Shown piece by piece: positions 34,375 to 38,529 of a stretch of DNA of 43,178 nt. Both the position numbers and the translations under genes were made by a program. How positions within the stretch are numbered: the stretch's first letter is position 1; every line of letters starts with the position of its first letter. The notes beneath the pieces are model-generated. The model worked only from the letters and a program-made list of their open reading frames with translations, did not search any database and was not told where the DNA came from. Origin of the DNA: a virus; the IMG/VR virus record IMGVR_UViG_3300046777_001596, positions 1-43,178 of that record. One strand, written 5' to 3'.

Positions 34375-35040
34375 TTACCACGTAATATCGCCGTGAAGAA
34401 ATAGTTGTATAATTTTAATAACAACATTAACTAGAGCAAATAATCCTAACACAATTCCTATGTAATTAAGTTTTGTTAAGAAGTCTATACTTTTAAATAT
34501 TTTTTCATCTGTTTTAATACGTTCAATAATACTTTCTTGATGAAGAGCAGGAACTATTTGTTTTCTTTTCTGTAAGTATGTAACTTTAATTTGATGATCT
34601 TGAAAATCTGATTCGATTAAAGTTCTACGATCATTTACTAATTTTTTATCTATTGGTTCCACTAATACAGGAACACCTTGAGGCAAATAATGCATAATAC
34701 TTGCATCTATTAAATAAGAAGGACTAGTTTCAGTTACAATAACAACATGCGTATCAATTTCTCCAGGATTAGTAATTTCATCAAATCCAACAAATCTTAA
34801 ACTAGATGGTTGATGACTATAGTAAGTAAATGTCGCAGAAACTTCTACTAATCTACTTTCAATCCCTTTATGTTTAAGTGCAGTTTTTACAATATCACTC
34901 ATGCTAATACAATTACCAACGCCCATAACTAAGACACCATGCCTTGATAGCTTTGTTAAGACGCTAGCAATTGTATTATAAGTTTTGTCAGAATCACTAA
35001 CTTCAGAACTGGTAAATGTTTTTATTTTTTGTAATTCCAT
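34375..35040 (-). CDS. Transglutaminase-like membrane protein
   Basis: The start at 35040 avoids overlap with the tRNA-Tyr gene. The 221-aa product has GVGNCISMSDIVKTALKHKG (C44), DTHVVIV (H98) and YLIDAS (D112). This is a Cys-His-Asp order with the local patterns (NC...A....GI.sR, H..v, DAS) of transglutaminase/protease-like folds. A C-terminal hydrophobic helix (about 193-215, IGIVLGLFALVNVVIKIIQLF) would anchor it in the membrane. The substrate may be peptide or amine linkages. The assignment is inference from motif order. Confidence 0.55.
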   Translation of the reverse strand: MELQKIKTFTSSEVSDSDKTYNTIASVLTKLSRHGVLVMGVGNCISMSDIVKTALKHKGIESRLVEVSATFTYYSHQPSSLRFVGFDEITNPGEIDTHVVIVTETSPSYLIDASIMHYLPQGVPVLVEPIDKKLVNDRRTLIESDFQDHQIKVTYLQKRKQIVPALHQESIIERIKTDEKIFKSIDFLTKLNYIGIVLGLFALVNVVIKIIQLFLHGDITW

Positions 35041-35057
35041 ATTATATCCTTGAATTA

Positions 35058-35150
35058 TGGTGGGTGTCCACGGATTCGAACCGCGAATGTTTACCACGAG
35101 GGACCGGATTTACAGTCCGGTGCAGCACACGCCATAGCTGCAAGACACCC
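35058..35150 (-). tRNA. tRNA-Tyr (GTA)
   Basis: Acceptor GGGTGTC/GACACCC, anticodon loop CTGTAAA on stem CCGGA/TCCGG, long variable arm, T-loop TTCGAAT, encoded CCA. Confidence 0.95.
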
Positions 35151-35236: not shown

Positions 35237-36076
35237 TTAATTCGTATTATACACTCTAATGAATAATTCACGCCACATGTTACTAATCGTAACTGGACTA
35301 AATTTTTCTCTAATGTAATCTTGTCCTAACTTTACTTTCCACAATGCTTCATCTTGATTAGCAAGCGCCCATTTTATTCCTTCTGACACATCACCTTGCC
35401 AAATAAACTCCTTAAATTCATTCCATGCTTCAACATTAAAGTTGGGCGTAATAATAAACTTACCAGCTCTCAATGCTCTAATAATTCTATTTCCATTAGT
35501 CATTGGATTGCTGCTAGTAAGTAATACTAATCCATTCTCTTTTAACAACTGGAGTTCAGTTTTTTCACTATATTGAACAAGTTTAGAAGTTTCAATATTT
35601 TTAGAACATACAATAAGTTTATCTAATTTAAGATAAGGTCTTAAGCTAGAAGTGTTAGATGGATGACCGAACCATACTATGTTATCGTTAGGAATACTAG
35701 GCAACCATTCTTCATTAGTGTAACAATCTTCTATTATTTCACTCTTAAGTCTAAAGTCTTTGTATAGCTTTTCTTGAAGCTTCTTAGATGCTACAGAAAT
35801 AACAGTTGAATGCATTACTAAACTTCTTTGAATAAGACCGATTTCATGATCTCTGTCTAAATGGAAGTCTGTGATGTCATATATTGATTTAAACTTTAAT
35901 TCCTTTAGCTTTTCAAAATGATATTTTGATATTGCTCTAAACATTAAAGTTACATCTCCAGCTGTTCCTAACACATAATCGAGACCATGCAAACGCATTG
36001 GAGCGTCTACTCTATATCTAAATCCAGCATGACCTGAATAAAGGTCACCAATATATCCAATAGTAGGTAATTTCAT
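35237..36076 (-). CDS. Glycosyltransferase-like protein
   Basis: A 279-aa protein with a GT-B-like layout. It begins KLPTIGYIGDLYSGHAGFRYRV and has SIYDITDFH and VISVASKKLQEKL, the central IVWFGHPSNTSSLRPYL, and a donor-site-like C-terminal half (NPMTNGNRIIRALRAGKFIITP, EGIKWAL). The G-x-P-S-N and N.R.IRAL.AGK..I.P patterns fit glycosyltransferases acting on a nucleotide sugar. With the sugar genes at 39-43 kb it may build or modify a glycan. It ends 1 bp before tRNA-Cys. Confidence 0.6.
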   Translation of the reverse strand: MKLPTIGYIGDLYSGHAGFRYRVDAPMRLHGLDYVLGTAGDVTLMFRAISKYHFEKLKELKFKSIYDITDFHLDRDHEIGLIQRSLVMHSTVISVASKKLQEKLYKDFRLKSEIIEDCYTNEEWLPSIPNDNIVWFGHPSNTSSLRPYLKLDKLIVCSKNIETSKLVQYSEKTELQLLKENGLVLLTSSNPMTNGNRIIRALRAGKFIITPNFNVEAWNEFKEFIWQGDVSEGIKWALANQDEALWKVKLGQDYIREKFSPVTISNMWRELFIRVYNTN

Positions 36077-36953: not shown

Positions 36954-37027
36954 TGGTACGGGCACGGAGAATCGAACTCCGATTTACTGGTTAAAAGCCA
37001 GTTACTTTACCACTAAGTTATACCCGC
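36954..37027 (-). tRNA. tRNA-Lys (TTT)
   Basis: Acceptor starts GCGGGTA, anticodon loop CTTTTAA on stem CTGG/CCAG, T-loop TTCGATT, encoded CCA. Its 5' ten bases carry the stop of the GGQ-protein gene. Confidence 0.94.
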
Positions 37028-37425
37028 AAATTTAAAACAGATGTATCGAATAAATTTGGATCATCTACTAATTGATTCTCTTTCACTTCTGTCCATTTAC
37101 CATCTATTTTAACTTCTAATCTAACTTTCTTCAAACTTTCAGTAAGCTGACGTTCCATCTCATAATGTTCGCCAGTACGCTTCATATATTCAACATGCAA
37201 CCATTTTTTAAACTTATCTGATTCCGCCATCTTACGAAATGCCTCTTGTCTATTATCAAGTTGGCTACGACTGGATTCACTATAACCGTGGGCTCCAGAT
37301 GCTTTGTGTATACAATGGACAGCGCTAGACGTCTTGTTGCGTTTCTGTCCACCAGCACCGGTGCCCTTGGTATAGGACCACTCACAGTCTTTCGCAGTAA
37401 TACTAAAAAATGGATCTTTACTCAT
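37018..37425 (-). CDS. RF-1/PrfH-like GGQ-domain protein
   Basis: A 135-aa protein carrying the peptidyl-tRNA hydrolysis motif GGQ at residues 25-27 in YTKGTGAGGQKRNKTSSAV, then HKASGAHGYSESSRSQLDNR. The GGQ.RNK..SAV...H..SG and SRSQ..N+..A patterns are those of the RF-1 catalytic domain, closest in layout to stand-alone PrfH/ArfB-type proteins rather than codon-reading RF1/RF2. It would release peptides from stalled or damaged ribosomes. It lies inside the tRNA cluster and ends in tRNA-Lys. Confidence 0.8.
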   Translation of the reverse strand: MSKDPFFSITAKDCEWSYTKGTGAGGQKRNKTSSAVHCIHKASGAHGYSESSRSQLDNRQEAFRKMAESDKFKKWLHVEYMKRTGEHYEMERQLTESLKKVRLEVKIDGKWTEVKENQLVDDPNLFDTSVLNLRV

Positions 37426-37444: not shown

Positions 37445-37520
37445 TGGTGCCACCTCGTGGAATCGAACCCCGTTCCGACGCTCTTCAGGCGCCTGCTATG
37501 ACCACATCAGCTAAAGCGGC
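37445..37520 (-). tRNA. tRNA-Phe (GAA)
   Basis: Acceptor GCCGCTT/AGGTGGC, anticodon loop CTGAAGA on stem GGCGC/GCGTC, T-loop TTCGATT, encoded CCA. Confidence 0.93.
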
Positions 37521-37525
37521 ATTTA

Positions 37526-37598
37526 ACCATATTGAAACATACTCACGGCTCTAAACCGCTGAACAATACTGCCCTGATAGAATATGCTTCAATATGGT
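37526..37598 (-). repeat. tRNA-spacer hairpin element, copy 1
   Basis: 73 bases bounded by ACCATATTGAAGCATA and its complement TATGTTTCAATATGGT (minus reading), forming a 16-bp outer helix with one G.U pair. The interior holds a second small stem near CGGTTTAGAGCCG. The element ends 5 bp before the 5' end of tRNA-Phe and follows the tRNA-like segment at 37599-37717. Confidence 0.85.
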
Positions 37599-37717
37599 CA
37601 GTAGGGCAGGGGATGGATGCATCTTCCGTTTCAAACGATAGTCCGGACTATCTACGCGGTCGAAGTTGATCTTTAGTCTGCAACCTCACCAAGTCGGCTC
37701 ACAGTTACTTCCTACTC
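37599..37717 (-). other. Structured tRNA-like segment between hairpin copies 2 and 1
   Basis: 119 bases with no ORF. On the minus strand its ends pair as AGTAGG/CCTACT and are followed by G-ACCA, like a tRNA acceptor with discriminator and CCA. A D-arm-like AGCC...GGTT with a GG-containing loop follows the 5' strand. No T-arm is present. Inside are a perfect palindrome GATAGTCCGGACTATC and a hairpin CGTTTGAAACG. It may be a degenerate tRNA or a separate structured RNA. Confidence 0.5.
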
Positions 37718-37819
37718 ACCATATTGAAACACACTCATCAAACTCCCTAGGCGGTTACTCTAGGTCCTATCGCTTTTCGAACCGTAGACCAATACGGCAG
37801 GAATGTGCTTCAATATGGT
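37718..37819 (-). repeat. tRNA-spacer hairpin element, copy 2
   Basis: 102 bases bounded by ACCATATTGAAGCACA and TGTGTTTCAATATGGT (minus reading), a 16-bp helix with the same G.U pair as the other copies. The interior contains CCTAG/CTAGG and a GGTTCGAAAAG loop that looks like a T-arm. It is preceded by the segment at 37820-37939. Confidence 0.85.
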
Positions 37820-37939
37820 TGCCGGTTACAAAATCCGGCGTTACATTTTCGGAGTAACTGTTCTACCTATCCCGTCACCGACTTCGTTTAAGACTCGCCG
37901 CCTTTATACACGCTGATGGCCACGTGTTATGGTATTGCT
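37820..37939 (-). other. Structured tRNA-like segment between hairpin copies 3 and 2
   Basis: 120 bases with no ORF. On the minus strand GTCGGT can pair with ACCGGC near the 3' end, which is followed by AACCA, again acceptor-like. A D-loop-like GGGATAGGTAGAA and a GTTAC/GTAAC stem with a 9-nt loop (TCCGAAAAT) follow; the T-arm is absent and replaced by a GCCGG/CCGGC hairpin. Its AAGTCGGT could also pair with GCCGACTT in the next segment. Function unknown. Confidence 0.45.
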
Positions 37940-38018
37940 ACCATATTGAAACACACATTGTCCTCGCACCTTTCGGCATAGCGGATCCAGTTTGAGGATT
38001 ATGTGTGCTTCAATATGG
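37940..38018 (-). repeat. tRNA-spacer hairpin element, copy 3
   Basis: 79 bases that begin (minus reading) with the CCA of tRNA-Gln: CCATATTGAAGCACACAT pairs with ATGTGTGTTTCAATATGG, again with one G.U pair. After a 2-base internal loop the helix continues as TCCTC/GAGGA. The terminal part contains GCCGAAAGGTGC. Confidence 0.85.
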
Positions 38019-38089
38019 CAGGGGTACCTGGAATCGAACAAAGAGCAGTGGAATCAAAATCTACTGTGTTACCATTACACCATACCCCA
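38016..38089 (-). tRNA. tRNA-Gln (TTG)
   Basis: Acceptor TGGGGTA/TACCCCT with a T-T mismatch at the first pair, anticodon loop TTTTGAT, T-loop TTCGATT, G discriminator. Its CCA is also the 5' end of hairpin copy 3. Confidence 0.9.
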
Positions 38090-38095
38090 ACAGTT

Positions 38096-38171
38096 TGGCG
38101 CCGTAGACGGGGATCGAACCCGCCGCGACCTGATAGACAGTCAGGTATCACCACCAGGTGGACTCTACGGC
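38096..38171 (-). tRNA. tRNA-Asp (GTC)
   Basis: Acceptor GCCGTAG/CTACGGC, anticodon loop CTGTCTA on stem CCTGA/TCAGG, T-loop TTCGATC, G discriminator, encoded CCA. Confidence 0.94.
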
Positions 38172-38176
38172 ATATT

Positions 38177-38249
38177 TGGTAGCGAGACCCGGAATCGAAC
38201 CGGGAACTAGAGCTTATGAGACTCTCGAGGTACCTTTTCTCCATCTCGC
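38177..38249 (-). tRNA. tRNA-Met (CAT), second copy (possibly tRNA-Ile2)
   Basis: Acceptor GCGAGAT/GTCTCGC, anticodon loop CTCATAA on stem AGAGT/GCTCT, T-loop TTCGATT, encoded CCA. Not a clear initiator because the anticodon stem lacks three G-C pairs. It could be an Ile tRNA whose C is modified to lysidine. Confidence 0.88.
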
Positions 38250-38256
38250 AATTGTT

Positions 38257-38332
38257 TGGCTGTCCTGGAAGGGCTTGAACCTCCGACCAATTGATTAACA
38301 GTCAACTGCTCTACCTACTGAGCTACAGGACA
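38257..38332 (-). tRNA. tRNA-Asn (GTT)
   Basis: Acceptor TGTCCTG/CAGGACA, anticodon loop CTGTTAA, T-loop TTCAAGC, G discriminator, encoded CCA. Confidence 0.94.
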
Positions 38333-38340
38333 ATAAAGTT

Positions 38341-38420
38341 TGGTGGAGGATATCGGATTCGAACCGATCTGAATACCCGCATTGCAAGTGCGGTGACCAC
38401 CCCAAGCAGTCCCATCCCCC
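38341..38420 (-). tRNA. tRNA-Ala (TGC)
   Basis: Acceptor GGGGGAT/ATCCTCC, anticodon loop CTTGCAA on stem CCGCA/TGCGG, T-loop TTCGAAT, encoded CCA. The D region is longer than usual (total 80 nt). Confidence 0.9.
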
Positions 38421-38425
38421 AGATT

Positions 38426-38529
38426 ACCATATTGAAACACACTAATACCAAACTTTTTCGCCCCGGCTTATATGTCTATGCATCGTAGCGTTGGTCCTTG
38501 ACGGGTCTTCAAGTGTGCTTCAATATGGT
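38426..38529 (-). repeat. tRNA-spacer hairpin element, copy 4
   Basis: 104 bases filling the whole gap between tRNA-Ile and tRNA-Ala. On the minus strand ACCATATTGAAGCACACT pairs with AGTGTGTTTCAATATGGT (18 bp including one G.U), and its ACCA is the discriminator and CCA of tRNA-Ile. The interior has CTTGA/TCAAG with a 7-base loop. Confidence 0.85.

What the first reader, a model, noticed from the sequence alone, without database searches (positions are those of the whole stretch)
37526..38529. Four-copy family of long hairpins inserted at tRNA 3' ends
Copies lie at 37526-37598, 37718-37819, 37940-38018 and 38426-38529. Each has an outer helix of 16-18 bp built from ACCATATTGAAGCACAC and its near-complement, but the interiors differ in length and sequence. 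In every copy the one position where the arms are not complementary is A-C in plus-strand RNA but G.U in minus-strand RNA, the strand on which all the tRNAs lie. That is strong evidence of selection on the RNA helix. Copies 3 and 4 begin exactly at the CCA of tRNA-Gln and tRNA-Ile; copies 1 and 2 follow tRNA-like segments that also end in ACCA. Possible roles: processing signals, RNase decoys or a mobile RNA cassette.
Basis: partly seen in the sequence, partly recalled or inferred. Interest (0 to 1): 0.92.

Follow-up and report, generated by a model that had tools for sequence, protein, structure and literature searches.

The report
Exchangeable RNA hairpins capping phage tRNAs
Uncultured T4-like phages carry, between their tRNA genes, hundreds of copies of an RNA hairpin whose long stem takes in the tRNA's CCA tail and whose middle is a swappable, conserved mini-RNA; I found it in no database family or paper searched, and its job is unknown.

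Summary
The four hairpins are real (fold z -4.6 to -8.4) and lie on the tRNA strand. They belong to a large family: 369 copies in 184 IMG/VR loci, mostly T4-type phages with big tRNA arrays. An exact-arm pattern gives none in 84,980 prokaryote genomes, and BLAST finds no convincing match among 50,697 phage records. Half of the copies begin exactly at the N73-CCA of a called tRNA. Most others follow structured non-tRNA RNAs that also end in a stem plus NCCA. The clamp helix is selected as RNA: extensive double-sided covariation, and 355 G.U against 43 A.C cells on the tRNA strand. Interiors are not filler: about 154 families were seen (Chao1 about 430), several nearly invariant with internal covariation while arms and neighbours differ. 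Orthologous sites with at least 90% identical flanks carry different interiors; one site (L218) shows a clean gain of an extra hairpin. Best reading: modular RNA cassettes, each a conserved small RNA held in a standard clamp that closes on CCA, exchanged by recombination and probably released during tRNA processing. Transcription, cleavage and function are untested. No phage RNase III, tyrosine recombinase or Y1 transposase was found.

The parts
37526..37598 (-). Hairpin c1 (73 nt), clamp ACCATATTGAAGCATATT / AGTATGTTTCAATATGGT, interior CTATCAGGGCAGTATTGTTCAGCGGTTTAGAGCCGTG
   Evidence: Fold z -7.5; interior 97-100% identical in 14 other loci with different neighbours
37599..37717 (-). Segment A: non-tRNA RNA-like unit with terminal stem AGTAGG/CCTACT then G-ACCA
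   Evidence: Not called by ARAGORN or Rfam; 95-99% identical over 93-119 nt in 10 other loci; terminal stem differs but pairs in L054
37718..37819 (-). Hairpin c2 (102 nt)
   Evidence: Fold z -5.5; interior 98-100% identical in 6 other loci
37820..37939 (-). Segment B: conserved non-tRNA RNA-like unit ending GCCGG-loop-CCGGC-A-ACCA
   Evidence: 97-100% identical in most of the other loci that hold it, preceded and followed by different hairpins; no Rfam or phage-record match
37940..38019 (-). Hairpin c3 (80 nt), begins at G73-CCA of tRNA-Gln
   Evidence: Fold z -8.4; 4-nt overlap with tRNA-Gln; interior seen only here
38016..38089 (-). tRNA-Gln(ttg), whose CCA is the first strand of c3
   Evidence: ARAGORN, Rfam
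38426..38529 (-). Hairpin c4 (104 nt), between tRNA-Ile and tRNA-Ala
   Evidence: Fold z -4.6; interior 99-100% identical in 11 other loci, also at a non-tRNA site in L189; replaced by another interior at the same site in L074
38526..38600 (-). tRNA-Ile(gat), whose ACCA is the first strand of c4
   Evidence: ARAGORN, Rfam
37445..37520 (-). tRNA-Phe(gaa), next RNA downstream of c1 (5 nt between)
   Evidence: ARAGORN
38341..38420 (-). tRNA-Ala(tgc), next RNA downstream of c4 (5 nt between)
   Evidence: ARAGORN

Best explanation
The hairpins are members of a family of RNA cassettes that live in the tRNA arrays of T4-type phages. Each cassette has two parts. The first is a standard clamp helix of about 18 bp (NCCAUAUUGAAGCACAUU / AGUGUGYUUCAAUAUGGU). 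Its outermost pairs take in the discriminator and CCA of the preceding tRNA or tRNA-like RNA, and its 3' strand ends at or just before the next RNA. The second is an interior, a small structured RNA conserved within each of many families. Shown: the RNA strand, the helix, the CCA register, the conservation of interiors, the exchange of interiors at fixed sites and at least one gain. Inferred: the cassettes are co-transcribed with the tRNAs; the clamp stacks on the acceptor stem and hides CCA; tRNA processing at both ends releases the cassette as a stem-closed small RNA; and the interior then acts in trans on a host or phage factor. The clamp would be the adaptor that lets any interior sit in any spacer without harming tRNA maturation, and its shared sequence would be the homology through which cassettes are swapped between co-infecting phages.
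For: 369 copies in 184 loci; in the first set 269 against 1 in reversed sequence, 134 starting exactly at N73-CCA of a called tRNA and 37 ending 3 nt inside the next tRNA. G.U against A.C cells on the tRNA strand 355:43; interiors fold better on that strand, p 2e-6. Non-tRNA RNAs upstream of hairpins also end in a paired 3' strand before NCCA (0.70 against 0.41 shuffled, p 2.5e-13). F1 family, collected by its interior and not by its arms: 27 distinct sequences, 93.5% of cells paired, 13 pairs and 69 cells with double changes, 0/500 shuffles for cells paired and for cells doubly changed; interior almost invariant while outer arms change and still pair. Of 60 interior families found in two or more loci, 31 have different neighbours on both sides. 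Same site with both flanks at least 90% identical: 8 pairs carry different interiors, 22 the same. Gain of a hairpin in L218 against 9 relatives.
Against: No transcript or processed end has been seen; all of it is genome sequence. Near-identity of interiors could partly reflect recent spread rather than function. Interiors are so diverse that no single trans function is visible. Many families (112 of 154) were seen at one site only, so their conservation is untested. The strong bias for tRNA-Glu, Lys, Gln and Leu upstream is not explained.
Confidence: 0.55

Rival explanations
1. Processing insulator only: the hairpin is a double-stranded spacer that a host nuclease (for example RNase III) cuts to separate pre-tRNAs; the interior is mere loop.
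For: Exact placement between CCA and the next RNA; helix conserved and covarying; hairpins replace the ordinary 7-10 nt spacers (L113 vs L238 and L215 vs L143).
Against: Interiors are conserved with compensatory changes and are more conserved than the outer arms; most tRNAs in the same arrays have plain short spacers; no phage RNase III in 15 large contigs.
Confidence: 0.2
2. CCA lock: the clamp keeps the upstream tRNA immature (CCA base-paired, so it cannot be charged) until a regulated or damage-induced cut in the hairpin releases it.
For: N73-CCA lies inside the helix in half of all copies and UGG always faces CCA there; strong bias for tRNA-Glu, Lys, Gln and Leu upstream.
Against: Clamps also follow non-tRNA RNAs, and F1 copies exist whose clamp does not hold CCA but still pairs. 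Position 1 is not compensated: N73 G meets U, not C.
Confidence: 0.12
3. DNA-level mobile element: the arms are terminal inverted repeats (MITE-like) or an attC-like recombination site, and the RNA features are secondary.
For: Modular exchange, gain in L218, CCATA repeated at two insertion sites; the same element at several sites.
Against: Strand follows the tRNA 212:12, G.U against A.C 355:43, no inverted interiors, no tyrosine recombinase or Y1 transposase, no target duplication at ordinary tRNA spacers.
Confidence: 0.1
4. Intrinsic terminators or chance palindromes.
For: Long stems.
Against: Only 16 of 368 hairpins have 5 or more T in the next 8 nt, and further RNAs follow on the same strand; control count 1 against 269.
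Confidence: 0.02

Closest known systems
Integron gene cassettes with attC sites
   Same: A constant folded site with a variable middle; cassettes are exchanged as units in an array.
   Different: Here the cassette is the inside of the hairpin; selection is on RNA of the tRNA strand; the helix base is ACCAUA/UAUGGU rather than the attC R boxes; no integrase was found.
T4 stable RNAs C and D (species 1 and 2) of the tRNA cluster (own knowledge)
   Same: Small non-tRNA RNAs encoded among phage tRNAs, function unknown; segments A and B may be of this kind.
   Different: T4 is not known to have a family of clamp hairpins closing on CCA. A search of INPHARED, which holds many T4-type phages, with hairpin sequences gave no convincing hit.
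Phage tRNA arrays as counter-defence (T6 tRNA-Tyr against Septu, PMC13096335)
   Same: Same genomic niche in T4-type phages; rearranged by recombination.
   Different: There the effector is a tRNA; the hairpins are not tRNAs, though about 13% of interior families hold a T-loop-like motif.
rRNA/tRNA processing stalks cut by RNase III (own knowledge)
   Same: A long helix that brackets or follows a stable RNA.
   Different: The helix takes in CCA itself, has a conserved sequence and carries conserved interiors; cleavage untested.
GOLLD and ROOL ornate phage RNAs near tRNAs
   Same: Large structured RNAs found in phages near tRNA genes.
   Different: These hairpins are 45-220 nt, modular and in many copies; no Rfam match.

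Membership tests
Integron attC site | Tyrosine recombinase that acts on it | tested here: not met
   PF00589 absent from 15 contigs of 108-400 kb
Integron attC site | R boxes GTTRRRY/RYYYAAC at the base | tested here: not met
   Base is NCCATA/TATGGN
Integron attC site | Exchange of cassettes at conserved sites | tested here: met
   Different interiors at sites with at least 90% identical flanks
MITE / TIR transposon | Terminal inverted repeats | tested here: met
MITE / TIR transposon | Target-site duplication | tested here: inconclusive
   CCATA repeated at L218 and L189 but not at ordinary tRNA spacers
MITE / TIR transposon | Insertion in both orientations | tested here: not met
   Strand matches tRNA 212:12; no inverted interiors
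IS200/IS605 or REP elements moved by Y1 transposase | Y1 transposase in the same genome | tested here: not met
   PF01797 absent from 12 contigs; a transposase acting from elsewhere not excluded
Any Rfam 15 family other than tRNA | Score at or above gathering threshold | tested here: not met
   Window region at E<=5; 16 loci at gathering: tRNA and one group I intron in the 150 listed matches, 6 lower-scoring ones not shown
tRNA | Cloverleaf found by ARAGORN or Rfam | tested here: not met
   Hairpins and segments A, B not called; T-loop motif in about 20 of 154 interior families
Intrinsic terminator | U-tract after the stem | tested here: not met
   16 of 368
RNase III processing stalk | Cut by RNase III in vivo | not testable with these tools
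   Needs RNA; no phage-coded RNase III

The most novel reading that the evidence does not exclude
T4-type phages keep a shared, recombining library of several hundred RNA effectors. Each is mounted in the same CCA-closing clamp and plugged into tRNA arrays, as integrons do for genes, so that phages acquire RNA decoys or inhibitors against host tRNA-targeting and other defences by swapping loops.
Probability: 0.2. Interest if true: 0.95.

Novelty: categorically new. Interest (0 to 1): 0.86.

Why it matters
If right, there is a class of phage noncoding RNA that current annotation does not see: modular, exchangeable, with several hundred interior families, in a niche (phage tRNA arrays) already tied to counter-defence. 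It gives a ready list of conserved RNAs to express and test, and a new way to fuse foreign RNA to tRNA 3' ends. It also poses a sharp question: why does evolution bury the CCA of certain tRNAs (Glu, Lys, Gln, Leu) in a helix?

Tried and rejected
Intron or split tRNA: considered from T-arms in interiors and tRNA-like remnants; no consistent exon join was apparent and hairpins start after a complete tRNA in half of the cases (no systematic excision test was run). Hammerhead-like core (GATGAG, GAA) seen by eye in some interiors: no match to the consensus and no Rfam hit; dropped. Intrinsic terminator: rejected. Interior inversion between the inverted arms: looked for, none. CRISPR-repeat likeness of GTTTCAAT: considered a coincidence, no repeat-spacer order. 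A first genome pattern search had a spacing error and found nothing; repeated correctly. GTDB scan: zero, for the exact-arm pattern only. INPHARED: no convincing match with B, c4 or an F1-type hairpin; a bare 18-nt arm match lies near the detection limit there. Literature: seven searches in the open library found no description; preprints and most subscription papers were not covered.

Full report
WHAT WAS CHECKED. The four hairpins lie at 37526-37598, 37718-37819, 37940-38019 and 38426-38529. Read as RNA on the minus strand, which carries all 24 tRNAs, each folds into an 18-19 bp outer helix with energies far below shuffles (z -7.5, -5.5, -8.4, -4.6). On the plus strand the same DNA folds less well in every case. 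The arm sequence occurs eight times in the window against 0.71 expected. Copies 3 and 4 overlap the N73-CCA of tRNA-Gln and tRNA-Ile by exactly four bases. Copies 1 and 2 follow segments A and B (119 and 120 nt), which end in a stem plus ACCA but are not called tRNA. The G.U at pair 12 is common to all four copies and so is one inherited fact. Two copies have a further U.G at pair 17, and copy 3 has a G73.U.

THE FAMILY. In the fetched loci a rule-based scan found 269 hairpins in 133 loci against one in reversed sequence, and 369 in 184 loci after later fetches. Exactly 134 of the 269 start at offset -3 to a called tRNA end, that is at N73-CCA; only three others lie within 20 nt, each at a different offset. 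Thirty-seven end three bases inside the next tRNA. An exact-arm pattern is absent from 84,980 GTDB genomes, and no convincing match to B, c4 or an F1-type hairpin was found among 50,697 phage records. Twelve contigs of 160-400 kb that hold them all carry the T4-type Gp23 capsid protein. In these 12 contigs every further pattern hit lies within the tRNA arrays on the tRNA strand. The window's DNA polymerase is 47% identical to that of T4-like Synechococcus phages. None of the 15 largest contigs encodes RNase III or a tyrosine recombinase, and none of 12 a Y1 transposase.

SELECTION ON RNA. Among 220 distinct hairpins with known tRNA strand, arms show 355 G.U and 43 A.C cells on that strand. Nearly half of the A.C cells (21) sit at pair 9, mostly in the ACCATATAAAAAC subfamily. 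Interiors fold more stably on the tRNA strand (p 2e-6). To avoid the bias of finding hairpins by their pairing, I collected one family, F1, by its interior alone (40 loci). Its alignment (27 distinct rows) has 93.5% of cells paired, with double-sided changes at 13 of 28 pairs and in 69 cells. No shuffle of 500 reached the paired or doubly-changed-cell values, and slid controls are far lower. The outer arms differ strongly between copies (ACCATATTGAAAC, ACCATAGATAAAC, ACCATATATAAAC, GTTATATTGAAGC, GTATTGAAAC and others) and keep pairing, while the interior is nearly constant with compensatory changes in its own stem (C-G to U-A at columns 32-62). Its invariant AGUA and GAA look like a bulged-G (sarcin-ricin/loop E) motif; this is my inference from the sequence.

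WHAT PRECEDES AND FOLLOWS. Hairpins without a called tRNA upstream follow RNA-like units whose last six bases are paired (mean 0.70 against 0.41 in shuffles, p 2.5e-13), again followed by NCCA. Segment B is 97-100% identical in most of the loci that hold it, among them a 400-kb phage (L050) whose tRNA-Gln flank is only 73% identical. Hairpins follow tRNA-Glu, Lys, Gln and Leu far more often than expected and never Met, Ser, Asp, Pro, Ala, Trp or His. Shared ancestry inflates this, and I cannot explain it.

CASSETTES. 221 distinct interiors fall into 154 families; Chao1 suggests about 430. Of 60 families found in two or more loci, 31 have different neighbours on both sides. Eight pairs of sites with at least 90% identical flanks hold different interiors, with breakpoints inside the arms, for example L106 vs L147 and L068 vs L200; the window's own c4 site holds another interior in L074. 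L218 carries an extra hairpin between tRNA-Glu and the F1 hairpin, absent in nine relatives, with flanks 99-100% identical to L220 and CCATA repeated. L189 has a c4 hairpin at a site where four loci have none, again with ACCATA repeated; deletion by slippage is possible there. Interiors are never inverted. About 13% of interior families hold a T-loop-like motif: GGTTCGA in 17 families against 0.7 expected.

INTERPRETATION. Shown by the data: an RNA helix on the tRNA strand, closing on CCA; conserved interiors in many families; exchange and gain of cassettes. Inferred: co-transcription with the tRNAs, stacking of the clamp on the acceptor stem, release by tRNA processing, and action of the interior in trans. 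The clamp works as an adaptor and as shared homology for exchange; in T6, recombination in the tRNA region driven by SegB is known (PMC13096335). I put about 0.55 on cassettes of conserved small RNAs, 0.2 on a pure processing insulator, 0.12 on a CCA lock and 0.1 on a DNA-level mobile element.

NOVELTY. No Rfam 15 family matches apart from tRNA and one group I intron (six of the lower-scoring matches were not shown). Seven full-text searches found no description, though preprints and most subscription papers were not searchable. The combination of a constant clamp closing on CCA, a library of conserved exchangeable interiors, and restriction to uncultured T4-type phages fits no known kind I can name, hence 'categorically new'; the function is unproven.

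Noticed in passing
L039 6003-6186, L092 1415-1588, L042 and L087 segments between hairpins: By eye, several inter-hairpin segments look like tRNAs with D-arm and T-arm but no anticodon arm, ending near CAATGGRT before the clamp. Possibly a class of anticodon-less tRNA-like RNAs.
   Followed up: no
All loci: Hairpins directly follow tRNA-Glu, Lys, Gln and Leu in excess and never Met, Ser, Asp, Pro, Ala, Trp or His; they directly precede Asp, Ala, Tyr and Met more than expected.
   Followed up: partly
L003, L010, L028, L036, L087, L105, L109 and others: Arm subfamily ACCATATAAAAACACATT / AGTGTGTTTCTATATGGT keeps an A.C mismatch at pair 9 on the tRNA strand.
   Followed up: partly
window 37018-37425 (-): RF-1 domain (GGQ-type release factor/ArfB-like) protein encoded inside the tRNA array; also in 3 of 12 large contigs.
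   Followed up: partly
L092:1339, L095:514, L179:1517: Interior with two stem-loops showing the same 7-nt loop CGATTGT, suggestive of a protein-binding repeat.
   Followed up: no
L011 9120-9290, L026, L189, L252: A further conserved non-tRNA unit ending GGGGCTCTTGGGAAAGAGTAGCYGAT-ACCA directly upstream of segment B or a hairpin.
   Followed up: no
window 34375-35097 and 35237-36076 (-): Two ORFs between tRNA genes without Pfam match; other array ORFs are PstS-like, 2OG oxygenase, metallophosphatase-like and MazG.
   Followed up: no
L030 13185-13378 (-): Group I intron (Rfam) just upstream of tRNA-Gly in a hairpin-bearing array.
   Followed up: no
L216, L221, L222 (F1 copies): F1 interior in a different outer arm (TAGACTATTTTGATGAAT.. 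/ ..TTCTTCAAAATAGTTTA) that does not contain CCA, so the interior and inner clamp can exist apart from the CCA register.
   Followed up: partly
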